Shown in pieces: positions 2,660-23,128 of a stretch of DNA of 28,875 bases. Position numbers and translations under genes: made by a program. Every line of letters starts with the position of its first letter. The first letter of the stretch is position 1. Below the pieces are notes generated by a model, which was given only the letters and a program-made list of their open reading frames with translations, did not search any database and had not been told where the DNA came from. Origin of the DNA: a virus; IMG/VR virus record IMGVR_UViG_3300044591_000714, positions 1 through 28,875 of that record, one strand, 5' to 3'.

Positions 2660-3391
2660 ATGACGACCTACACCGCAGGCGAACAGATTAACCGGGCGCT
2701 TCGGTTGTTGGGCGTTTTGGCTGAAGGAGAAACTCCGTCTGCGTCGGTGTCGCAAGATGCTTTGATGGCGCTAAATCAGATGGTTGATTCGTGGTCAACC
2801 GAGCGACTGGCTGTTTTTGCCACCATCGACCAGATCGTCAACTGGCCGACCGGCTCTATCAACGAGACTCTTGGCCCCAGCGGTTCGCTGGTACGCCTGA
2901 ACGGCACTGCTGTACGCCCGATTCTGGTGGACGACGCCACCTACTTCAAAGACCCCGGCACTGGCGTGTCGTACGGCATCAAGCTGATCAATCAGCAACA
3001 GTACGACGGCATCGCTGTCAAGACTGTGACCTCGACTTTTCCGCAGGTGATGTTTGTAAACAACACCTACCCGAACTTTGACATCTTTATCTACCCGCGC
3101 CCGACGCGGCTGCTGGAGTGGCACTTCATCAGCGTCCAAGAGTTGACGCAGCCGGCTAATCTGTCCACCCAGATTCTGTTCCCGCCAGGCTACCTGCGGG
3201 CGTTCACCTACAACTTGGCCTGCGAGATCGCGCCAGAGTTTGGCGTCGAACCAAGCCCCCAGGTGCAGCGCATTGCGATGTACAGCAAGCGCAACTTGAA
3301 GCGCATCAACAACCCGGACGATGTGATGTCGATGCCGTACTCGCTAATCGCTACGCGGCAGCGGTACAACATCTACGCCGGAAATTTTTGA
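2660..3391 (+). CDS. P22 gp4-like packaged-DNA stabilisation protein (head-tail adaptor)
   Basis: 243 residues from the ATG at 2660; longer in-frame starts upstream would overlap the preceding small gene. In P22, gp4 binds under the portal after packaging, seals the head and gives the platform for gp10 and tailspikes. Family features seen are the N-terminal ALRLLGVLAEGETPSA..DALMALNQMVDSW segment, a central YFKDPGTGVSYGI / NTYPNFDIFIYPRP region, and a C-terminal helical part with FPPGYLRAFTYNLACEIAPEFG. Somewhat longer than P22 gp4 itself (about 166 residues) but typical of wider family members. It is followed by the gp10-like gene, as expected for a neck/tail module. Confidence 0.85.
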   Translation: MTTYTAGEQINRALRLLGVLAEGETPSASVSQDALMALNQMVDSWSTERLAVFATIDQIVNWPTGSINETLGPSGSLVRLNGTAVRPILVDDATYFKDPGTGVSYGIKLINQQQYDGIAVKTVTSTFPQVMFVNNTYPNFDIFIYPRPTRLLEWHFISVQELTQPANLSTQILFPPGYLRAFTYNLACEIAPEFGVEPSPQVQRIAMYSKRNLKRINNPDDVMSMPYSLIATRQRYNIYAGNF

Positions 3392-3393
3392 TC

Positions 3394-3555
3394 ATGGAGT
3401 TCACTTTTCGCTCTCGTCCCTTCGAAGTGTGCGTGCGTCTTGGCCGCGTATACGACTTGCTGGAGGAGCGGTTCTTGGGTTCCGCTATCAACGTGCGCGT
3501 CGGCAAAACTGTTTGGACTACCGGTAAAGGCTTGCAAAGGATAGGTCAAGCATGA
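3394..3555 (+). CDS. Small hypothetical protein between gp4-like and gp10-like genes
   Basis: 53 residues, MEFTFRSRPFEVCVRLGRVYDLLEERFLG and a basic C-terminal region. The ATG lies 2 bases after the preceding stop and the TGA overlaps the ATG of the gp10-like gene (ATGA), a typical coupled arrangement that supports translation. A basic mini-protein of mixed alpha/beta character; no motif is recognised. Its position inside the neck/tail operon suggests a virion-assembly accessory role, but this is inference only. Confidence 0.65.
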   Translation: MEFTFRSRPFEVCVRLGRVYDLLEERFLGSAINVRVGKTVWTTGKGLQRIGQA

Positions 3556-4991
3556 AAACGCCGATCCTTGGCTCGACCTATGTGGCTCGCAGCGTCAACG
3601 CTGCGGATGCCCGCATGGTCAACCTGTTTCCCGAGATCGTGCCCGAGGCGGGCAAGGAGCCGGCGTTTCTAAACCGCGCCCCCGGCCTGCAACTGCTCAA
3701 CTCGATTGGCACTGGCCCGATCCGTGGTTTGTGGGCCTTCTCGCCGCAGGACGGCACCGGCTTTGTGGTGTCGGGCACCCAGTTGTACAAGATCAACAAC
3801 AGCTACACGCCGACGCTGTTGGGCACCGTGGCAGGCGCCGGCCCGGTCAGCATGGCCGATAACGGCACCCAGCTCTTCATCGCGGCCAACGGCCCGAGCT
3901 ACATCTACAACAACACGACCAACGCCTTTGGACAGATCACCGACCCGGACTTTCCTGGCGCAGTGACCGTAAGTTACTTAGACGGCTACTTTGTCTTCAA
4001 CGAGCCGAACAGCCAAAGGCTGTGGATTACGGCGCTGCTTGACGGCACGTCGATTGACCCGCTGGAGTTTGCCAGCGCCGAAGGCTCGCCCGACGGATTG
4101 GTGGCTGTTATATCCAACTTCCGCGAGGTGTGGGCCTTTGGCACCAACTCAATTGAGGTTTGGTCTGACACGGGCGCAACGGACTTCCCGCTCCAGCGCA
4201 TCCCTGGTGCGTTCAACGAGTTGGGCTGCGCCGCGCCCTACTCGATTGCCAAGATGGACAACGGCCTGTTCTGGCTTGGGCGCGACCGACGCGGTCAGGG
4301 CATCGTCTACCGGGCCAACGGCTACGCCGGCCAGCGCATCAGCACCCACGCCGTCGAGTGGCAGATTCAGCAGTACAGCGACCTGTCGGACGCGGTTGCG
4401 TACACCTACCAGCAAGACGGTCACAGCTTCTATGTGCTAATCTTCCCCACGGCCAACACGACCTGGGTGTACGACGTTGCCACCCAAGCCTGGCATGAGC
4501 GGGCTGGCTGGAACAACGGCGAGTTCACCCGACACCGCAGCAACTGCCAGATGGCGTTCAACAACAAGGTAGTCGTCGGCGACTACGAGAACGGCAACAT
4601 CTACGCCTTTGATCTGGAAGACTACTCGGACAACGGCAGCATCCAGAAGTGGCTGCGGTCGTGGCGGGCGCTGCCTACTGGCGCCAACAACCTCAAGCGC
4701 ACCGCGCAGCACAGCTTGCAACTCGACATCGAGGCCGGCACTGGCTTGAACTTGGGCCAAGGCAGCGACCCCGAGGTCATGCTGCGCTGGTCGGACGATG
4801 GTGGTCACACATGGTCCAACGAGCACTGGGCGCAGATCGGCAAGATCGGCGAGTACTATCGCCGGGTGTTCTGGCGGCGCATGGGCATGACCCTGAAGCT
4901 GCGCGACCGCGTTTATGAGCTATCGGGCACCGACCCCGTGAAGATCAGCATCATGGGCGCAGAGTTGATTCTGAGTCCAACGAATGCTTAG
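3552..4991 (+). CDS. P22 gp10-like packaged-DNA stabilisation protein (tail hub)
   Basis: 479 residues, the usual length for the gp10 family (about 470). It starts with the conserved segment MKTPILGSTYVARSVNAADA followed by MVNLFPEIVPEAGKEPAFLNRAPGL. Repeated beta-propeller-like blades follow (GTQLYKI, GTQLFIAANG, YLDGYFVF, VWAFGTNSIEVW, GLFWLGRDRRGQGIVYR). In P22, gp10 hexamers form the tail hub that joins gp4 to the needle and tailspikes and helps retain DNA. The C-terminal third, with RWSDDGGHTWSNEHWAQIGKIGEY and RRMGMTLKLRDRVYEL, is a strong family hallmark. It overlaps the next gene by 8 bases, so the two are likely translated together. Confidence 0.92.
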   Translation: MKTPILGSTYVARSVNAADARMVNLFPEIVPEAGKEPAFLNRAPGLQLLNSIGTGPIRGLWAFSPQDGTGFVVSGTQLYKINNSYTPTLLGTVAGAGPVSMADNGTQLFIAANGPSYIYNNTTNAFGQITDPDFPGAVTVSYLDGYFVFNEPNSQRLWITALLDGTSIDPLEFASAEGSPDGLVAVISNFREVWAFGTNSIEVWSDTGATDFPLQRIPGAFNELGCAAPYSIAKMDNGLFWLGRDRRGQGIVYRANGYAGQRISTHAVEWQIQQYSDLSDAVAYTYQQDGHSFYVLIFPTANTTWVYDVATQAWHERAGWNNGEFTRHRSNCQMAFNNKVVVGDYENGNIYAFDLEDYSDNGSIQKWLRSWRALPTGANNLKRTAQHSLQLDIEAGTGLNLGQGSDPEVMLRWSDDGGHTWSNEHWAQIGKIGEYYRRVFWRRMGMTLKLRDRVYELSGTDPVKISIMGAELILSPTNA

Positions 4992-12014: not shown

Positions 12015-12182
12015 CAAGTCCCGATAGGCGTTAATCGCCGTCTTCAGGTCTTGGCGCAGGTGCATGATCTCGTCCTGCTGCTCTTGCATCTTTGCGTAGG
12101 CGTCCTGCGCGAACTTTGCCAGCGTCGCTGGCTGCCAGCTTTGGAAGTCTGGCGCGTTCTTCTGTGAAAAATCAGTGCTCAT
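12003..12182 (-). CDS. Small coiled-coil protein, last gene of the left minus-strand operon
   Basis: 59 residues read from 12182 to 12003. Sequence MSTDFSQKNAPDFQSWQPATLAKFAQ followed by a predicted coiled coil (AKMQEQQDEIMHLRQDLKTAINAYRDLLRR). The start overlaps the stop of the zinc-ribbon gene (ATGA). Its end overlaps the lysozyme 3' end by 12 bases on the opposite strand, so the operons converge with no room for a terminator. No function is recognised. Confidence 0.65.
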   Translation of the reverse strand: MSTDFSQKNAPDFQSWQPATLAKFAQDAYAKMQEQQDEIMHLRQDLKTAINAYRDLLRR

Positions 12183-12535
12183 TGTTGCGCTCGTGTGTTG
12201 CTTTGATACGCAGGTATCCCCGCCCGCCGACCTATGGTGCTGATCATGTTATCACTAAGGCCAAATGTTTTGGCGATCACAAAATGCTTTTCGCCAGTAC
12301 GCATCATGTTCAGGATTTGCTCATTGCGTGCGTGCAGTTTTTGCTTTTTACGGATGCTTTTAATGTGCGGAAGAAGATACTTTTTTAGCGTCTCTTCTAG
12401 CCCGTCATCTATCTCATAGGTAAAAAACTTCAGCCCGCACTGGCCGCAACCGCGCCGCCGCCGCATAACTAGCGCGTCATGCTCTGTCCGAGAGTCCAAA
12501 ACGGATGTCTTGCACCCACACTGCACGCACTTCAC
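12179..12535 (-). CDS. NrdR-like zinc ribbon fused to a helix-turn-helix: putative phage regulator
   Basis: 118 residues. Residues 1-41 look like the zinc ribbon of NrdR: Cys3-x2-Cys6 and Cys30-x2-Cys33, with VLDSR and RRRRGCGQCGLKFFTYE between and after them. Bacterial NrdR continues into an ATP-cone that senses nucleotides; here that is replaced by a basic helical linker (about 45-75, LKKYLLPHIKSIRKKQK) and a helix-turn-helix-like segment (about 78-105, ILNMMRTGEKHFVIAKTFG then LSDNMISTIGRRAG). This suggests a DNA-binding regulator that borrowed the ribbon without nucleotide sensing. ATGA overlaps join it to both neighbouring genes. The ribbon assignment is confident; targets are unknown. 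It may act on phage promoters or host nrd genes. Confidence 0.7.
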   Translation of the reverse strand: MKCVQCGCKTSVLDSRTEHDALVMRRRRGCGQCGLKFFTYEIDDGLEETLKKYLLPHIKSIRKKQKLHARNEQILNMMRTGEKHFVIAKTFGLSDNMISTIGRRAGIPAYQSNTRAQQ

Positions 12536-17295: not shown

Positions 17296-17402
17296 GCGGA
17301 TGCTGTGCCAGAGTCAGGTCTATTGGTGACATGACTATAGGTCGTCAAGGGCTGTCATGAGCAATGCTTGCCGATCCGTGAGTTCGAATCTCACCAGACG
17401 CA
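17296..17402 (+). ncRNA. tRNA-like element (degenerate or atypical tRNA) in the polymerase leader
   Basis: A textbook T-arm is present: GTGAG (17378-17382), TTCGAAT loop, CTCAC (17390-17394). It is followed by the 7-base acceptor-like strand CAGACGC (17395-17401) and a discriminator A. Upstream, GCGGATGCTG (17296-17305) can form an acceptor 5' strand as GCG/CGC plus CTG/CAG around an internal bulge. T17306 would be U8, and CCA...TGG (17308-17310 with 17324-17326) encloses a D-loop-like GAG...GG stretch. The middle does not give a clean anticodon arm (best helix TGAC/GTCA at 17332-17347), and no CCA is encoded. Probably a decayed or non-decoding tRNA-like RNA; a tRNA-derived attachment site is another possibility. 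Confidence 0.4.
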
Positions 17403-17423
17403 GCGAGTACCCCCGCCTTTTTT

Positions 17424-20222
17424 ATGATCCTCTGGATCGACTTCGAGACGCGCAGCCGGGTAGACCTCGGCAGCAAAGGCGTCTACAACTACGCGCAGGA
17501 CATGAGCACCGAAGTGCTGTGCATGTCCTACGCCTTCGACGACGGTGAGGTCGTCACATGGCTTCCAGGCCAGCCGTTACCCGACTTCACCGGGTGCACC
17601 ATCTACGCCCACAACGCGGCGTTTGAGCGCTTAATTTTTTGGTATGTGCTTCAGCAGAATTTCGCCTTAGAGCAGTTCTACTGCACCGCCACGCAGGCTA
17701 GGGCCAATTGCGCCCCTGGCAGCCTTGAGGACGTGGGGCGCTTTGCCAGTGCGTCCATGAAGAAGGACCACCGAGGGAGCCAGTTGATCCGGCTGCTGTC
17801 CATCCCCCAAGCTGATGGCACCTTCCGCGAGGACGCGGCGCTGATGGCTGAGATGATCGCCTATTGCGAGCAGGACGTGAGGGCCATGCGCGAGATCAGC
17901 AAGGCCATGCGGCCCCTAAGCGCTGAGGAGTTGGCTGACTATCACGTCAACGAGCGCATCAACGACCGTGGCGTGCTGGTGGACGTGCCGCTTGCCAAGG
18001 CAGCGATGCGCTACGCTCACGACGAGCTGGTTGAGATCGAGGAGCGCGTGGCTGAGCTGACCGACGGCGAGATCACCAGCGTACGCTCGCCCAAGATGCG
18101 CGAGTGGGTGCTTGAGCGCGTGGGCGACGAGGCCAAGAAGCTGATGCTGGTCAAGGACAAGTATTCAATTGACAAGACTGTGCGGGCCAACTTGCTCGCG
18201 ATGGAGAACCCCGATGAGATACCGCCCGCTGTCGCCGAGGTCATACAGTGCGCTGATGACCTCTGGGCGTCGTCAGTTGCGAAGTTCAGCCGCATGGCAG
18301 ACCTGGCAGACGACGAGGATTGCCGAGTCCGTGGCGCTTTTGTCTTCGCTGGGGGTGCCGCCACTGGTCGTGCATCGAGCTATGGACTCCAAGTGCATAA
18401 CTTCACTCGCAAGTGCGCTAAGGAACCTGACGCGGTACGAACATCTATGGTCAGAGGACATAACATTGTCCCTGCCTACGGAAAACGAGTCACAGATGTT
18501 CTACGGGGAATGCTCCGGCCCGCACTGATACCGGCTAAGGGAAAGCACTTCGTCGTCGCCGACTGGTCGGCCATCGAGGGCCGCGTCAACCCGTGGCTGT
18601 CAGGCAGCGCCTTTGGCGAGGCCAAGCTGGACGTGTTCAGGCGCAAGCTGGATCCCTACAAGGTCAACGCTGCTGCGACGTACAGCGTGGCCTATGAGGA
18701 GGTCACTGGCGAGCAGCGTCAGGTCGGCAAGGTGCAGGAGTTGGCTTGCTTTGCCGCTGAAACCAAGGTCTTGACTAGTAACGGAGTCAAGGCTATAGTG
18801 GACGTTCAATTAACTGATCTTTTGTGGGACGGCCAATCATGGGTGACGCATCAGGGGGTGATATGCAAGGGAGTTCGACCAACTATCAACGTGTGCGGAA
18901 TCGAAGTAACGCCGGATCATTTGATCAAAACAAAGGCAACTTGGACGCAGGCGCAGGAAATCGTTTCAAACAAACAGTTGCTGACCCAAGCGTTGGAAGT
19001 CGGTTCGGCTTCCTTACCGTATTGGGCGTTGAGTTTCACGATCAAGGCGCCTGCCGGATGCGGCTCGTTCGTGTTCAGTGTGATTGCGGCGCTGCGCCGC
19101 ACTTGGTCTACATCCATAACCTTCTCAAAGGCAAATCGACGCGGTGCAACGTATGCGCCAAAAAATCTGCTGGCTTCTGGCGAAAAGATTTTTACAAGTA
19201 TGCCGATGCCTGCCCAGATGACGAGCACCGCCGGCGCCTGCTCAACCGGCTATCTGCTTGCAAGAACCGATGCCACAACCCCAAGGATCGAGGCTATCCA
19301 AACTATGGTGGCAGGGGGATACATCTACATGAGCCCTGGCGCACTGACAAGGCGGCGTTCCTCCGCTACGTTGTCACGCTTGATGGATGGGATCAGCCGC
19401 ATCTGGAACTCGACCGTATTGACGTCAATAAGGGCTATGAGCCGGGCAATCTACGGTTCGTTACGCGGCAAGTCAATCAGGCTAACCAACGAAAAGTCCG
19501 AGACATGCAACGGTACATCACCGAACTTGAGGCCCGTGTACGACATCTTGAACAGCGGCTCGCGCAATCGGTTTACAGTGCTGAGTGACGCCGGTCCGTT
19601 GATCGCGCATAACTGCGGGTTTGCTGGAGGTGTCGGGGCATTTGCCGCAATGGGTAGAGTGTATGGAGTTCACTTTACTGAAGCTCAAGCAAGAAAAACT
19701 GTCGACGCCTGGCGCCGCGCTAATCCGTGGGCCGTGCCGTTTTGGCAAGACCTGGAGGAAGCGTACACCCGTGCGATGCGTAACAAGGGCCATGAGTTCA
19801 GCGCAGGCCGTGTGGCGTACCTCTTTGACGGTCAGCACCTGTGGTACGCGCTGCCCTCTGGGCGCGTGCTATGCTACCCCTACGCTCGGCTGGAAAGCGA
19901 TGGGGTGACTTACGCCAAAGCATCGTGGAAGCCAGCCGCAGACGCTACAGAGTGGCCTCGCGCCCGCCTCTGGAAGGGCCTGGCCTGCGAGAACATTACT
20001 CAAGCCGCAGCCAATGACATCCTACGCCACGCCTTGCGCCAGCTCGAAATGGAGGGCGAGCAAATTGTTTTGCACGTTCACGATGAGGCTGTGGCAGAGA
20101 CTGCCGACCCCATAGCAACTACAGAGCGCATGCGCCGCGTAATGACAACGCCGCCTGCGTGGGCGCAAGACCTGCCGCTCAACATCGAAATAAGCACTAT
20201 GTCTCGGTACGGCAAAGGCTGA
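17424..20222 (+). CDS. Family A DNA polymerase precursor interrupted by an intein
   Basis: 932-residue precursor; removing the 289-residue intein leaves 643 residues, a normal phage PolA length. The N-terminal 3'-5' exonuclease has Asp6-x-Glu8 (WIDFETRS), Asn64 (YAHNAAFE) and Tyr147..Asp151 (YCEQDV). Polymerase motif A is DWSAIEGRV (Asp380). Motif B is split by the intein: VQELA before and CGFAGGVGAF after. Motif C is HVHDEAV (Asp887 of the precursor). All key residues are present, so activity should need only splicing. The start matches the family N-terminus exactly, yet no ribosome site precedes it: CCCCGCCTTTTTT directly abuts the ATG, preceded by a tRNA-like structure. It replicates the phage genome, with the nuclease, SSB-like and primase-helicase genes around it. 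Confidence 0.93.
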   Translation: MILWIDFETRSRVDLGSKGVYNYAQDMSTEVLCMSYAFDDGEVVTWLPGQPLPDFTGCTIYAHNAAFERLIFWYVLQQNFALEQFYCTATQARANCAPGSLEDVGRFASASMKKDHRGSQLIRLLSIPQADGTFREDAALMAEMIAYCEQDVRAMREISKAMRPLSAEELADYHVNERINDRGVLVDVPLAKAAMRYAHDELVEIEERVAELTDGEITSVRSPKMREWVLERVGDEAKKLMLVKDKYSIDKTVRANLLAMENPDEIPPAVAEVIQCADDLWASSVAKFSRMADLADDEDCRVRGAFVFAGGAATGRASSYGLQVHNFTRKCAKEPDAVRTSMVRGHNIVPAYGKRVTDVLRGMLRPALIPAKGKHFVVADWSAIEGRVNPWLSGSAFGEAKLDVFRRKLDPYKVNAAATYSVAYEEVTGEQRQVGKVQELACFAAETKVLTSNGVKAIVDVQLTDLLWDGQSWVTHQGVICKGVRPTINVCGIEVTPDHLIKTKATWTQAQEIVSNKQLLTQALEVGSASLPYWALSFTIKAPAGCGSFVFSVIAALRRTWSTSITFSKANRRGATYAPKNLLASGEKIFTSMPMPAQMTSTAGACSTGYLLARTDATTPRIEAIQTMVAGGYIYMSPGALTRRRSSATLSRLMDGISRIWNSTVLTSIRAMSRAIYGSLRGKSIRLTNEKSETCNGTSPNLRPVYDILNSGSRNRFTVLSDAGPLIAHNCGFAGGVGAFAAMGRVYGVHFTEAQARKTVDAWRRANPWAVPFWQDLEEAYTRAMRNKGHEFSAGRVAYLFDGQHLWYALPSGRVLCYPYARLESDGVTYAKASWKPAADATEWPRARLWKGLACENITQAAANDILRHALRQLEMEGEQIVLHVHDEAVAETADPIATTERMRRVMTTPPAWAQDLPLNIEISTMSRYGKG
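18851..18865 (+). promoter_or_regulatory. Ribosome binding site and start for the overprinted HNH gene
   Basis: AGGGGG (18853-18858) lies 4 bases before the ATG at 18863. It is within the intein coding sequence and out of the polymerase frame. The longer GTG start at 18824 has no comparable site, so the ATG is preferred. This suggests direct internal initiation on the polymerase mRNA. Confidence 0.6.
18863..19588 (+). CDS. HNH homing endonuclease overprinted in another frame inside the intein
   Basis: 241 residues from the ATG at 18863 (strong AGGGGG site) to TGA at 19586-19588. Its frame is one base behind the polymerase/intein frame, and it lies wholly within the intein. After about 43 low-complexity residues comes the phage HNH N-terminal domain: VGSRFGFLTVLGVEF, VQCDCG and RCNVCAKK (C-x-C and C-x2-C, likely zinc). 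Then comes the HNH core: NRLSACKNRCHNPKDRGYPN, YGGRGIHLHEPW, LELDRIDVNKGYEPGNLRFVTR and NQANQRKV, and a C-terminal coiled coil (ITELEARVRHLEQRLA). It is the likely homing enzyme that spreads the intein or itself. Its N- and C-terminal ends are coded by the same bases as intein blocks B and F. Normally such enzymes are fused in frame. Confidence 0.85.
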   Translation: MQGSSTNYQRVRNRSNAGSFDQNKGNLDAGAGNRFKQTVADPSVGSRFGFLTVLGVEFHDQGACRMRLVRVQCDCGAAPHLVYIHNLLKGKSTRCNVCAKKSAGFWRKDFYKYADACPDDEHRRRLLNRLSACKNRCHNPKDRGYPNYGGRGIHLHEPWRTDKAAFLRYVVTLDGWDQPHLELDRIDVNKGYEPGNLRFVTRQVNQANQRKVRDMQRYITELEARVRHLEQRLAQSVYSAE

Positions 20223-20327
20223 TATGATCTCGACAAACACGGCTAGTCTGGAAGTCATGAGCCAGACGAAAAGCGAACCTCCCGCCTGCCGTCGTTTCTT
20301 TTCTCGGAGGAATTGCGAGGGGTTTAC

Positions 20328-20822
20328 ATGAACCAAGAACAGCTTAAAGAGCTGCTGCATTACTGTCCCGAAACGGGCGTGTTTACGCGGCGGAAAAATT
20401 TTGGGCGCCATAAAGCAGGCGTAATTGTCGGGACAAAGCCCGGCAGAACTTGTAAGTATGTAACGATATATGCGGGCGGAAAGCGATATGTGGCGCAGCG
20501 GTTAGCCTGGCTATACGTGCACGGTCAATGGCCGGACGATGATCTTGACCACATAAACCGCATAAAAACAGACAACAGAATTGCAAACTTAAGGCAAGTA
20601 ACGCGATCTCAAAACATGCAAAACGTGTTGCTGCACCAACACAACACGAGCGGGCACAAAGGCGTAAGTTGGGCTGAACAGCTAAAAAAATGGCGCGTGT
20701 ATTTGTACGTGCAATACAAACAAATCCACATAGGTGTTTTTGCAAATTTTGACGATGCAGTTGCAGCGTACCACGTAGCGGCGACGCAGTACCACACTCA
20801 CAACCCGGTCACACAAGCATGA
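20328..20822 (+). CDS. Free-standing HNH endonuclease with AP2 DNA-binding domain
   Basis: 164 residues from ATG 20328, preceded by GAGGGG five bases upstream; a TTG further upstream is discounted. An N-terminal half (LLHYCPETGVFTRRKNFGRH and KYVTIYAGGKRYVAQRLAWLYVHG) leads to the HNH core LDHINRIKTDNRIANLRQVT with RSQNMQN (about 75-101). An AP2-like domain follows (GHKGVSWAEQLKKWRVYLYV and IGVFANFDDAVAAYHVAA, about 109-150). This is the classic phage HNH-AP2 homing endonuclease. It is noticeably more A/T-rich than flanking genes, a sign of recent arrival. It sits between polymerase and primase genes and overlaps the latter as ATGA, so it rides on the replication operon. Confidence 0.9.
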   Translation: MNQEQLKELLHYCPETGVFTRRKNFGRHKAGVIVGTKPGRTCKYVTIYAGGKRYVAQRLAWLYVHGQWPDDDLDHINRIKTDNRIANLRQVTRSQNMQNVLLHQHNTSGHKGVSWAEQLKKWRVYLYVQYKQIHIGVFANFDDAVAAYHVAATQYHTHNPVTQA

Positions 20823-23128
20823 CAACAAATTTCATCGACTACTTAGTGTCCCTCGCGCCAGAGGGCGAGACTTTTTTAGTTGTTAGGCAAAAGCCTGTTG
20901 GCAAGGAGTTGCAGTACCACGCCGACGGTGGCGTCAAAGCTACCTGGCCGGCGTTCCTGCCCAACAAGAAGATGGCCGAGGGCCAGTCGTGGTATGGCAA
21001 TACCGCCTCGTTCATCCTCGACCGTTTCACCGACGGCTATGCGCGCGCCAGTGCCGCCAACTGCGAGTATGTCCTGTGCATGGTGCTGGACGACGTGGGC
21101 GATCCCGTCAAGGCCCCCAAGACGCCGCCGCTGTCCCCGACCTGGGTGATGGAGACGAGCGAGGGCAGCTTCCAGTGGGGCTACGCATTCACTGAAGAGC
21201 AGCCGACCAAAGCCGAGTTTAGCGCGGCGATCACGGCCATCGCCGCTGCCGGTTACAGCGACGCTGGCGCGATCAACCCAGTGCGTAACTTTCGCTTGCC
21301 GGGGTCGGTCAACATCAAGCCCGGCCGCGACGGCTTCGCCTCGCGCCTTGTCGAGTTCCACCCCGAGCGCCAATTCACCCTCCCGCAAATCTGCGAAGCG
21401 CTCGGCGTCACCCCGCATGAGGAGGTGACCGCCTTTCGCCCGATCCGCGTGTCCGACGACGGCGCCGATGACGTGCTGGCCTGGCTGTCAGGCCAAGGGC
21501 TGGTGCTGCGTAAGCCCAACGCCGAGGGTTGGGCCGGCATCATCTGCCCCAACGAGGCGCAGCATACCGACGGCTCGCCTGAGGGCCGCTACAACCCCGC
21601 CATGCGCGCGTATTGCTGCTACCACGGCCACTGCACTGAGCTGGACTCGGGTGCGTTTTTGTCGTGGGTGGCCGAGAACGGTGGCCCGTCCCACGCCCCT
21701 GGCCTGCGCGATGAGCTGCTGGCGTCGATGATGACCGACGCCTTGAACAAGCTGCACCCCACCGAGGCGTTCCCAGACGAGGCAAAGCGCGTGATCGCCG
21801 AGGTCGAGCGCAAAGAGCTGGGCCGCACCACACGCGCCGAGTGGTACGCGAGGTTCTGTTACGTTCAAGAGGGCGACCATTACTTCGACCTGCAAGACCG
21901 CCGCGAGATCAGCCGTAGCACGTTTAACGCCCTGTTTCGCCATATCGAATGCCGGTCCCTGTTCGGCAAGAAGCCTAAGATAGAGGCGTCGTATTGCTTC
22001 GATGAGAACCGCCAAGAGATGGGCGCCCGCGCCCTGGTCGGTATCACCTACGCCGCCGGCGAGGGCGTGTTGGTGGCCCGTGACGGTGACGTGTACGGTA
22101 ACCGCTGGCGCGATGCCCGCCCGGCCATTGAGGCCGACGCTGGCGCCGACGTCGCGCCCTGGCTGGATCACTGCGCGGCGCTGGTGCCCGAGGCGTCCGA
22201 GCGCGAGCATATCTGGGACGTCATGGCCTATAAGGTCCAGCACCCGGAGATCAAGATCAACCACGCGGTCCTGCATGGTGGCGATCAGGGCTGCGGCAAA
22301 GACACCCTTTGGGCGCCGTTCATCTGGGCCGTCTGCGGCCCCCAGCTCAAGAACCGGGGTCTGCTCGACAACGACACTCTTGGGTCACAGTGGGGCTACG
22401 CGCTGGAGTCGGAGATTCTCATCCTGAACGAACTTAAAGAGCCAGAGGCCAAGGAGCGCCGCGCTCTGGCTAACAAGCTTAAGCCTATCATCGCCGCGCC
22501 GCCCGATATGCTCACGGTTAACCGCAAGGGGCTGCATCCGTACGATTCGCTTAATCGCATGTTCGTGCTGGCGTTCAGCAATGACCCGGTGCCGATCACA
22601 ATCGACAGTCAGGACCGCCGTTGGTTCTGCGTCTGGTCGTCGGCGCCTCGCATGGCGCCAGACGCCGCCGCCCGGCTCTGGGCATGGTACAAGGCCGGCG
22701 GCTATGAGGCGATCGCCGCTTGGCTGCGCGCCCGTGACGTGTCGGCGTTCAATCCCTCCGCTGCGCCAGGCTGGACGGAATTTAAAGCTAACTTGGTTGA
22801 GCATGGCATGAGCATTGCCGAGAGTTACTTGGTCGAAATGATGCGCGCGCGTCGGGGTGAGTTTGCCCGTGGGGTGGTCGGTAGCCCTTTTCATAGCCTC
22901 TGCGATCGCGTGGCGGCCTCTGCGCCGTCTGGCGTCAAAGTACCGCAGGCCGCGCTTCTGCACGCGCTTAAGGAGGCCGGCTGGATCGACTGCGGTCGGC
23001 TCAAGTCTCGGGCTAACGATGGCCGCAAGCACGTTTTCTGCGCGCCTGACATGGTCACGCATAGTAAGTCAGAACTGCGCGATTTGGTCGAGGAACCCGC
23101 ATCGCCGCTCATGGTGCGGGTCAAATAA
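20819..23128 (+). CDS. Primase-helicase (RepB-type primase plus DUF5906/SF3-like ATPase)
   Basis: 769 residues. The N-terminal 240 residues resemble RepB/AEP-type primases: VLCMVLDDVGDP (about 88-99) supplies paired aspartates and NPVRNFRLPGSVNIKPGRD the basic motif. A Cys/His cluster follows (ICPNEAQHTDG then YCCYHGHC), a possible zinc knuckle. The C-terminal ATPase has Walker A HGGDQGCGKDT (Lys494), Walker B-like ILILNELKEPE (Asn537-Glu538) and FVLAFSNDPVPI with QDRRWFCVW, the pattern of DUF5906 phage replicative helicases. It would prime and unwind DNA for the polymerase upstream. Last gene of the rightward replication operon, followed by a terminator. Asn in place of Asp in Walker B is common in this family. 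Confidence 0.85.
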   Translation: MTTNFIDYLVSLAPEGETFLVVRQKPVGKELQYHADGGVKATWPAFLPNKKMAEGQSWYGNTASFILDRFTDGYARASAANCEYVLCMVLDDVGDPVKAPKTPPLSPTWVMETSEGSFQWGYAFTEEQPTKAEFSAAITAIAAAGYSDAGAINPVRNFRLPGSVNIKPGRDGFASRLVEFHPERQFTLPQICEALGVTPHEEVTAFRPIRVSDDGADDVLAWLSGQGLVLRKPNAEGWAGIICPNEAQHTDGSPEGRYNPAMRAYCCYHGHCTELDSGAFLSWVAENGGPSHAPGLRDELLASMMTDALNKLHPTEAFPDEAKRVIAEVERKELGRTTRAEWYARFCYVQEGDHYFDLQDRREISRSTFNALFRHIECRSLFGKKPKIEASYCFDENRQEMGARALVGITYAAGEGVLVARDGDVYGNRWRDARPAIEADAGADVAPWLDHCAALVPEASEREHIWDVMAYKVQHPEIKINHAVLHGGDQGCGKDTLWAPFIWAVCGPQLKNRGLLDNDTLGSQWGYALESEILILNELKEPEAKERRALANKLKPIIAAPPDMLTVNRKGLHPYDSLNRMFVLAFSNDPVPITIDSQDRRWFCVWSSAPRMAPDAAARLWAWYKAGGYEAIAAWLRARDVSAFNPSAAPGWTEFKANLVEHGMSIAESYLVEMMRARRGEFARGVVGSPFHSLCDRVAASAPSGVKVPQAALLHALKEAGWIDCGRLKSRANDGRKHVFCAPDMVTHSKSELRDLVEEPASPLMVRVK

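What the first reader, a model, noticed from the sequence alone, without database searches (positions are those of the whole stretch)
18747..19613. Polymerase intein whose homing endonuclease is encoded in a different reading frame, overprinted across it
Seen: the PolA frame contains a full class 1 intein (Cys1, TPDH, HN, Cys+1) inserted in motif B. The same DNA, shifted by one base, encodes a complete 241-residue HNH endonuclease (18863-19588) with its own AGGGGG ribosome site. Known: homing endonucleases of inteins are normally fused in frame between the splicing blocks. Here the in-frame middle looks like a meaningless shadow, yet it has no stop over roughly 170 codons. If stops fell at about 3 percent of codons, such openness would occur by chance well under 1 percent of the time. 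Inference: a free-standing HNH gene invaded a mini-intein and is maintained out of frame, giving separate control of splicing and homing. HNH ends even share bases with intein blocks B and F. I know of no described system of this form.
Basis: partly seen in the sequence, partly recalled or inferred. Interest (0 to 1): 0.93.

Follow-up and report, generated by a model that had tools for sequence, protein, structure and literature searches.

The report
Intein with endonuclease in second frame
A phage DNA polymerase gene carries a protein-splicing insert (intein) whose DNA also encodes, in a shifted reading frame, the DNA-cutting enzyme that probably spreads it; the same two-in-one layout is kept in well over a hundred other phages, including long-sequenced ones, and uses both possible shifted frames.

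Summary
PolA (17424-20222) contains a class 1 intein (18747-19613). The same DNA, shifted, encodes an HNH protein ending at 19588. In 167 of 168 loci scanned, the intein ends share one frame, that frame has no stop, and HNH lies in the same shifted frame. Synonymous shuffling of 100 non-redundant HNH cores predicts 306±12 host-frame stops; none occur, while the third frame shows no avoidance. HNH Met codons never precede an A-starting codon (0 of 178; about 26% of codons start with A).

AlphaFold gives an ordered HINT fold (residues 1-90, 258-289) around about 160 disordered residues. Intein-less polymerases up to 96% identical exist. The window matches them up to the junction, then drops to 64% (vs 89% among empties) for 75 nt: a one-sided co-conversion footprint. 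Near-identical elements sit in divergent polymerases. A second kind (Caulobacter, APSE, streptococcal phages) uses the other alternate frame; one polymerase carries both.

Best reading: an overprinted homing intein, spliced from the host frame, with HNH translated by internal initiation. Activity is untested. Closest precedents: the ShiLan element (not an intein) and unexplained overlapping annotations in APSE-1 and SO-1.

The parts
17424..20222 (+). Family A DNA polymerase precursor ORF (932 codons) open through the intein; N-extein 17424-18746, C-extein 19614-20222
   Evidence: ORF; Pfam DNA_pol_A 1.1e-14, phrog_17 DNA polymerase 1.1e-80
18747..19613 (+). Class 1 intein in polymerase motif B: Cys1, TPDH (block B), HN (block G), followed by Cys+1
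   Evidence: AF2 HINT fold and Foldseek hits to gp41-1 and DnaX mini-inteins
18747..19016 (+). N-terminal splicing half (intein residues 1-90, pLDDT ~97)
   Evidence: HMM hit 138 bits
19017..19517 (+). Host-frame middle (intein residues ~91-257): disordered, free of stops, otherwise unconstrained reading-through of the HNH gene
19518..19613 (+). C-terminal splicing half (residues 258-289, pLDDT ~96)
   Evidence: HMM hit 57 bits
18839..19588 (+). Overprinted HNH endonuclease gene, 249 aa from ATG 18839 (conserved start); alternatives GTG 18824, ATG 18863; stop TGA 19586-19588, 25 nt before the intein end
   Evidence: phrog_374 E 2.9e-32; AF2 mean pLDDT 85
18962..19513 (+). HNH core: zinc-ribbon C-x-C...C-x2-C and DRID..GYEPGNLRF motif region, conserved across 70 relatives
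   Evidence: A6 invariant columns C81 C83 C103 C106 D192 R193 N204; HMM hit 306 bits
18819..18838 (+). Region upstream of the conserved HNH start; Shine-Dalgarno-like signal weak in the window, enriched on average in relatives
   Evidence: mean -7.35 vs -6.84 kcal/mol after host-synonymous recoding, p 2.7e-6; window itself -6.4 vs -6.6
19614..19763 (+). Probable co-conversion tract in the 3' extein (first 75 nt strongest), including the Leu to Cys change at +1 relative to empty alleles

Best explanation
This is a mobile class 1 intein whose homing endonuclease is overprinted instead of fused. SHOWN: one stretch of DNA encodes in the polymerase frame a complete HINT splicing domain interrupted by ~160 disordered residues, and in a shifted frame a conserved HNH-family protein; both frames are held by selection (the host frame only against stops in the middle, the HNH frame as a protein); the element is absent from near-identical polymerases and present at high identity in very different ones. 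INFERRED: ribosomes translate the full precursor, the intein splices itself out with the middle as a passive loop at the canonical endonuclease-insertion position, and a second start (NTG overlapping the intein's EWV codons; ATG 18839 here) yields a separate HNH protein. HNH nicks or cuts intein-less polymerase genes near the site, and repair copies the element in, taking ~75-150 bp of 3' flank with it and supplying the Cys+1 nucleophile.
For: Layout conserved in 167/168 loci, of which the HNH-only query gave 79/80 inside an intein; 100 non-redundant: 0 host-frame stops vs 306+-12, other frame not depleted; HNH-query-only subset 0 vs 186+-9.5, and HNH Met followed by A-starting codon 0/178 where 26% of codons start with A. 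Start codon signal, SD signal on average, HNH stop placed in the intein's own caTAAc 'HN' codons in 29/100. Host codon position 2 fastest and AF2 disorder only in the middle; HINT by Foldseek. Empty alleles up to 96% aa identical; one-sided flank divergence 0-75 nt 0.64 vs 0.89 among empties, ~0 difference upstream; +1 Leu in empties, Cys in window. Transfer: L162/L117 intein DNA 91% identical with unrelated-looking flanks right outside the junction, HNH 95% vs exteins 50% aa; the converse L163/L117 exteins 92%, HNH 59%. Independent second layout with HNH in the other frame, 0 stops vs 87.8+-6.4.
Against: No splicing, translation or cleavage data. The window's own SD before 18839 is no better than expected. 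The HNH family carries DR in place of the usual DH/HH, as do its free-standing relatives, so catalysis is assumed. The HNH model has no confident PDB match. The co-conversion footprint was measured at one locus only. 2 of 100 HNH cores have a premature stop, so not every copy is active.
Confidence: 0.85

Rival explanations
1. Frameshift artefact: a normal in-frame HNH intein is split by sequencing or assembly indels.
For: In the old SS3e record (L177) the frames are indeed broken by indels, showing such errors or mutations occur.
Against: The same offset with no stops in either frame recurs in more than 100 non-redundant loci from independent assemblies and isolates; an artefact would not deplete host-frame stops or constrain Met neighbours in HNH.
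Confidence: 0.01
2. HNH is made by programmed ribosomal frameshifting from the precursor, giving an N-extein/intein/HNH fusion rather than a separate protein.
For: The window kind needs a -1 shift; both products would come from one start, and overlap regions are long enough.
Against: Host-phase -1 slippery heptamers between offsets 95 and 300 occur in only 16 of 100 loci at scattered positions; a start codon at one position is selected instead, and in many loci the HNH frame is closed just upstream of it. The other kind would need +1 shifts.
Confidence: 0.07
3. The out-of-frame HNH gene is an inert passenger or decaying relic; the intein is vertically inherited.
For: Two of 100 HNH cores carry a premature stop; HNH activity unproven.
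Against: 98 of 100 HNH cores intact across deep divergence with codon positions 1 and 2 far slower than 3 (0.29, 0.22, 0.57); empty alleles, transfers between divergent polymerases and a flank footprint.
Confidence: 0.05
4. Group I intron carrying an HNH gene (as the SO-1 record says), the intein likeness being fortuitous.
For: SO-1 annotation calls it a type I self-splicing intron; HNH genes are common in phage polymerase introns (PMC3428280).
Against: No intron family match in 17400-20900 even at E <= 1; intein catalytic residues conserved and HINT fold predicted; host frame kept free of stops, which an RNA-spliced intron would not need.
Confidence: 0.01
5. ShiLan-like insertion: HNH gene inserted out of frame with no splicing, the host protein tolerating the insert.
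For: Same reading-frame relation, same HNH superfamily, insert that may also end in TAAC (PMC11855218).
Against: ShiLan lacks splicing motifs and intein fold by its authors' tests; here both are present and the insert interrupts the essential polymerase motif B.
Confidence: 0.02

Closest known systems
ShiLan domain / Pacc40 gp60 insertion (Arsenault, Gosselin, Gogarten 2025, PMC11855218)
   Same: Mobile HNH gene in an alternate frame of a phage gene, host frame free of stops, disjunct distribution; in ShiLan the stop lies in a terminal TAAC, as HNH stops lie in the caTAAc HN codons of 29/100 loci here
   Different: Authors found no intein or intron; here a complete splicing-type intein is present, in DNA polymerase, in >100 loci and in both alternate frames. 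The Pacc40 HNH lies outside a separate intein-like stretch in the same gene
Bifunctional inteins with in-frame homing endonuclease (PI-SceI, PI-MtuI type)
   Same: HINT domain, insertion at the canonical endonuclease position between blocks B and F, mobility
   Different: Endonuclease is in another frame, so the spliced intein would not contain it
Fractured genes: split inteins with a free-standing endonuclease gene between the halves (Dassa et al. 2009; known from memory, paper not held)
   Same: Separate endonuclease gene located between the intein halves
   Different: Here the two halves stay in one open frame, read through the endonuclease gene; no trans-splicing needed
Group I introns with HNH nicking enzymes in phage polymerase genes (I-HmuI, I-HmuII, I-BasI, I-PfoP3I; PMC3428280)
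   Same: HNH homing enzymes targeting phage DNA polymerase genes; three of them nick in the 3' exon, which fits a 3'-sided footprint
   Different: RNA-level splicing; the intron need not be free of stops; no intron structure here
APSE-1 P45/P46 and Sodalis phage SO-1 gp38/gp39 annotations
   Same: Overlapping polymerase and HNH genes were already listed in the records; Ent1-3 records mark the intein alone
   Different: The two halves of the story were not joined: SO-1 calls it an intron, Ent2 an intein without endonuclease

Membership tests
Class 1 intein | Cys/Ser1, block B TxxH, penultimate His and terminal Asn, Cys/Ser/Thr+1 | tested here: met
   C1, TPDH, HN, C+1 in window; C1, T55, H58, N289 invariant in 71 sequences, H288 >=90%
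Class 1 intein | HINT fold | tested here: met
   AF2 ends pLDDT ~97; Foldseek ranks 1-41 are essentially all inteins or HINT relatives (best E 1.9e-3, prob 1.00)
Class 1 intein | In-frame insert absent from homologous alleles | tested here: met
   80 empty polymerase loci, up to 96% aa identical
Class 1 intein | Protein splicing activity | not testable with these tools
   no expression data
HNH homing endonuclease | Sequence membership in HNH endonuclease families | tested here: met
   phrog_374 2.9e-32, phrog_3377 2e-22; no Pfam hit at E<0.1
HNH homing endonuclease | Catalytic HNH residues | tested here: inconclusive
   D192, R193, N204 invariant, but the usual His is Arg, as in free-standing relatives (sequences)
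HNH homing endonuclease | Cuts or nicks empty alleles and promotes homing | not testable with these tools
   only indirect: empty alleles, transfers, one-sided flank footprint
Bifunctional intein with fused endonuclease | Endonuclease domain in the intein's own frame | tested here: not met
   HNH offset +2 in 167/167 type I loci, +1 in type II; host-frame middle disordered
ShiLan-type out-of-frame HNH insertion | HNH in alternate frame with host frame open | tested here: met
ShiLan-type out-of-frame HNH insertion | No splicing domain in the insert | tested here: not met
   complete HINT blocks and fold
Fractured gene / split intein | Intein halves on separate ORFs | tested here: not met
   single open frame in all type I loci
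Group I intron | Conserved catalytic RNA | tested here: not met
   no intron family at E<=1 in 17400-20900

The most novel reading that the evidence does not exclude
Overprinted inteins are a widespread, previously unrecognised class of mobile intein: HNH genes were recruited into inteins out of frame at least twice, once in each alternate frame, producing an intein that splices from one frame and a freely diffusing homing enzyme from the other, so that enzyme dosage is set by internal initiation and not tied one-to-one to polymerase synthesis.
Probability: 0.72. Interest if true: 0.88.

Novelty: new variant of a known kind. Interest (0 to 1): 0.82.

Why it matters
Inteins are thought to carry their endonuclease as a domain of the same polypeptide. 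Here the two functions share DNA but not a frame, in more than 100 phages, including widely used Salmonella phages. It shows how an endonuclease gene can settle inside an intein without being fused, offers a testable intermediate for how inteins gain endonucleases, and is one of the cleaner natural cases of long overlapping genes in which the constraint on each frame can be measured. It also corrects annotations that miss half of the element: phages such as SETP3 and Ent1 are listed with an intein lacking an endonuclease, and SO-1 with an intron. An overprinted host-frame segment of ~160 residues that must only avoid stops is a natural example of a tolerated random linker inside a self-splicing protein.

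Tried and rejected
Sequencing indel: rejected by conservation. Group I intron: no Rfam match. Fused or split intein: rejected by frame analysis. Programmed -1 frameshift: slippery heptamers scattered, 16/100. Functional protein in the host-frame middle: rejected by position-2 rates, 4-fold divergence equal to exteins (0.63 vs 0.645, near saturation) and disorder; small composition shifts (hydrophobic 27.9% vs 27.1%) are significant but tiny and partly follow from stop avoidance. Hit between the window intein and Pacc40 gp60 (E 0.05) first suggested that the published Pacc40 out-of-frame HNH sits in an intein: it does not, the intein-like stretch is 2 kb downstream. Fetching ShiLan by a remembered accession gave another phage (Mutaforma13), so the ShiLan element itself was not compared. 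A first HNH tree had one row in the wrong frame and was redone; the AU test does not reject a single clade of all overprinted HNHs (p 0.084), so the two-origins claim rests on the tree plus the frame difference. PDB sequence search with the HNH profile gave only coiled-coil matches. Foldseek with the HNH model gave nothing confident. The bioRxiv preprint of Gosselin et al. 2025 on actinobacteriophage inteins with non-canonical architecture and Dassa et al. 2009 are not held and were not read; prior description there cannot be excluded.

Full report
CHECK OF THE OBSERVATION. The PolA ORF 17424-20222 is open for 932 codons and contains an intein at 18747-19613 with Cys1, TPDH, terminal HN and Cys+1. 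In a shifted frame the same DNA holds an ORF ending at 19588 that matches HNH endonuclease families (phrog_374 2.9e-32). The N-extein and C-extein match DNA polymerase families.

IT IS CONSERVED. tblastn of each frame separately against phage records hits the same places in Jerseyvirus Salmonella phages (SETP3, Ent1-3), Sodalis phage SO-1, EBPR siphovirus 2, Vibrio phage 97.13 and Pseudomonas phage MR14: the host frame over 289/289 residues at 28-38% identity, the HNH frame at 47-51%. Two scans of IMG/VR, one with HNH only and one with the host frame, gave 160 loci. With those from phage records, 167 of 168 have both intein ends in one frame, no stop between them, and HNH in the same shifted frame. 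Bacterial genomes (prophages of Erwinia, Elusimicrobia, Taishania and others) show the same.

BOTH FRAMES ARE UNDER SELECTION. Shuffling synonymous codons within each HNH core keeps the HNH protein and codon usage. Over 100 non-redundant loci this predicts 306+-12 host-frame stops; there are none. The third frame shows 1174 against 1198+-23. Restricting to 62 loci found with the HNH query alone gives 0 against 186+-9.5, so the result does not come from selecting loci by an open host frame. Met has no synonymous codon; of 178 Met codons in HNH cores none is followed by a codon starting with A (which would make TGA in the host frame), although 26% of codons start with A. So the host frame even restricts the HNH protein. 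In turn HNH codon positions 1, 2, 3 diverge 0.29, 0.22, 0.57, a normal protein pattern, which makes host position 2 the fastest. The host-frame middle therefore must avoid stops but is otherwise close to free. AlphaFold agrees: residues 1-90 and 258-289 at pLDDT ~97, the rest disordered; Foldseek finds mini-inteins.

HOW HNH MAY BE TRANSLATED. One NTG, overlapping the intein's xWV codons, is present at the same place in 99 of 100 loci (ATG 68, GTG 27, TTG 4, no CTG). A at the wobble base occurs 68 times against 34+-4.3 expected from extein codon usage. Where the codon is GTG an ATG two codons on is often preceded by GGGGAGGAG. Anti-SD pairing upstream is slightly stronger than after host-synonymous recoding (-7.35 vs -6.84, p 2.7e-6), although not in the window. 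HNH stops lie inside the caTAAc codons of the intein's terminal HN in 29 of 100 loci. This is best read as internal initiation; expression is inferred, not shown.

MOBILITY. Eighty polymerase loci without the intein, up to 96% identical in protein, were found. They have Leu at +1; the window has Cys. Compared with 36 close empty alleles the window is indistinguishable upstream right to the junction, then 0.64 identical against 0.89 among empties for 0-75 nt, 0.76 against 0.82 for 75-150 nt, then level again. This is what a short, one-sided co-conversion tract looks like; HNH enzymes I-HmuI, I-BasI and I-HmuII nick in the downstream exon (PMC3428280). The elements of L162 and L117 are 91% identical in DNA while their flanks lose similarity just outside the junction, with HNH at 95% and exteins at 50% aa; L163 and L117 show the reverse. 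Three insertion sites lie within a few codons of each other in motif B.

A SECOND, OPPOSITE FRAME. Caulobacter phage RLK and the APSE phages carry an intein at a second polymerase site, and Gardnerella phage AB1, Streptococcus phage Javan104 and many Firmicutes prophages one at the motif B site. In all of them HNH lies in the other alternate frame, again with no host-frame stop (0 against 87.8+-6.4 over 14 loci). L260 has one polymerase with both kinds. In an HNH tree the RLK/APSE group falls among free-standing phage HNHs (99/93 support) apart from the others, which suggests separate recruitment; a single clade is not rejected (p 0.084). L275 is a 129-residue intein of the same group without HNH, a candidate ancestral state.

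WHAT IS KNOWN. In the papers I could search, homing endonucleases of inteins are described as nested domains at one conserved position (PMC6801210). The nearest report is the ShiLan element, an out-of-frame HNH in a phage methylase with no intein or intron (PMC11855218). Records of APSE-1 and SO-1 list the overlapping HNH, and Ent2 lists the intein, but no held paper joins the two. A related bioRxiv preprint was not available.

VERDICT. The finding is real, general and, as far as the searchable literature shows, undescribed as a class. It is a new variant of a known kind: a homing intein whose endonuclease is overprinted. Splicing, HNH expression and cleavage remain to be tested.

Noticed in passing
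L260 322-4158: One 1278-codon polymerase ORF holds two overprinted inteins with HNH genes in opposite alternate frames (1669-2526 and 3001-3918).
   Followed up: yes
window 20236-20310 and 20313-20822: Near-threshold match to int-alpA RNA (RF02996, 34.4 bits vs 35.8 needed, E 1.4e-4) directly upstream of a free-standing AP2/HNH-like ORF that follows the polymerase.
   Followed up: no
L280 2502-3335 and 3756-4226; L283 2186-2563 and 2855-3697: Loci from bacterial genome assemblies with an overprinted intein plus a second intein without HNH nearby.
   Followed up: partly
L069, L163: HNH core has a premature stop while the host frame stays open: possible decay stage of the homing cycle.
   Followed up: partly
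L177 2465-3362 (Salmonella phage SS3e NC_006940.2): Frames are broken in this record so that the polymerase is annotated as three ORFs including an HNH gene; mutation or sequencing error.
   Followed up: partly
L169 3001-3213 (Mycobacterium phage Pacc40 gp60): The methylase with the published out-of-frame HNH (at 1002-1424 of the locus) also contains an intein-like N-terminal block about 2 kb further on.
   Followed up: partly
L173 (Proteus phage PM135) and L178 (Salmonella phage SP3): Further intein-like N-terminal blocks in a region between ribonucleotide reductase annotations (PM135) and in a ribonucleotide reductase gene (SP3).
   Followed up: no
window 12179-12535 (-): ORF with a Cys-rich zinc-ribbon-like start resembling NrdR/Ogr-type regulators (by eye only).
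   Followed up: no
PHROG phrog_93: This family, labelled 'endonuclease', matches the host frame through the intein (461-787 of PolA); it appears built from reading through overprinted inteins, so its name may mislead.
   Followed up: partly
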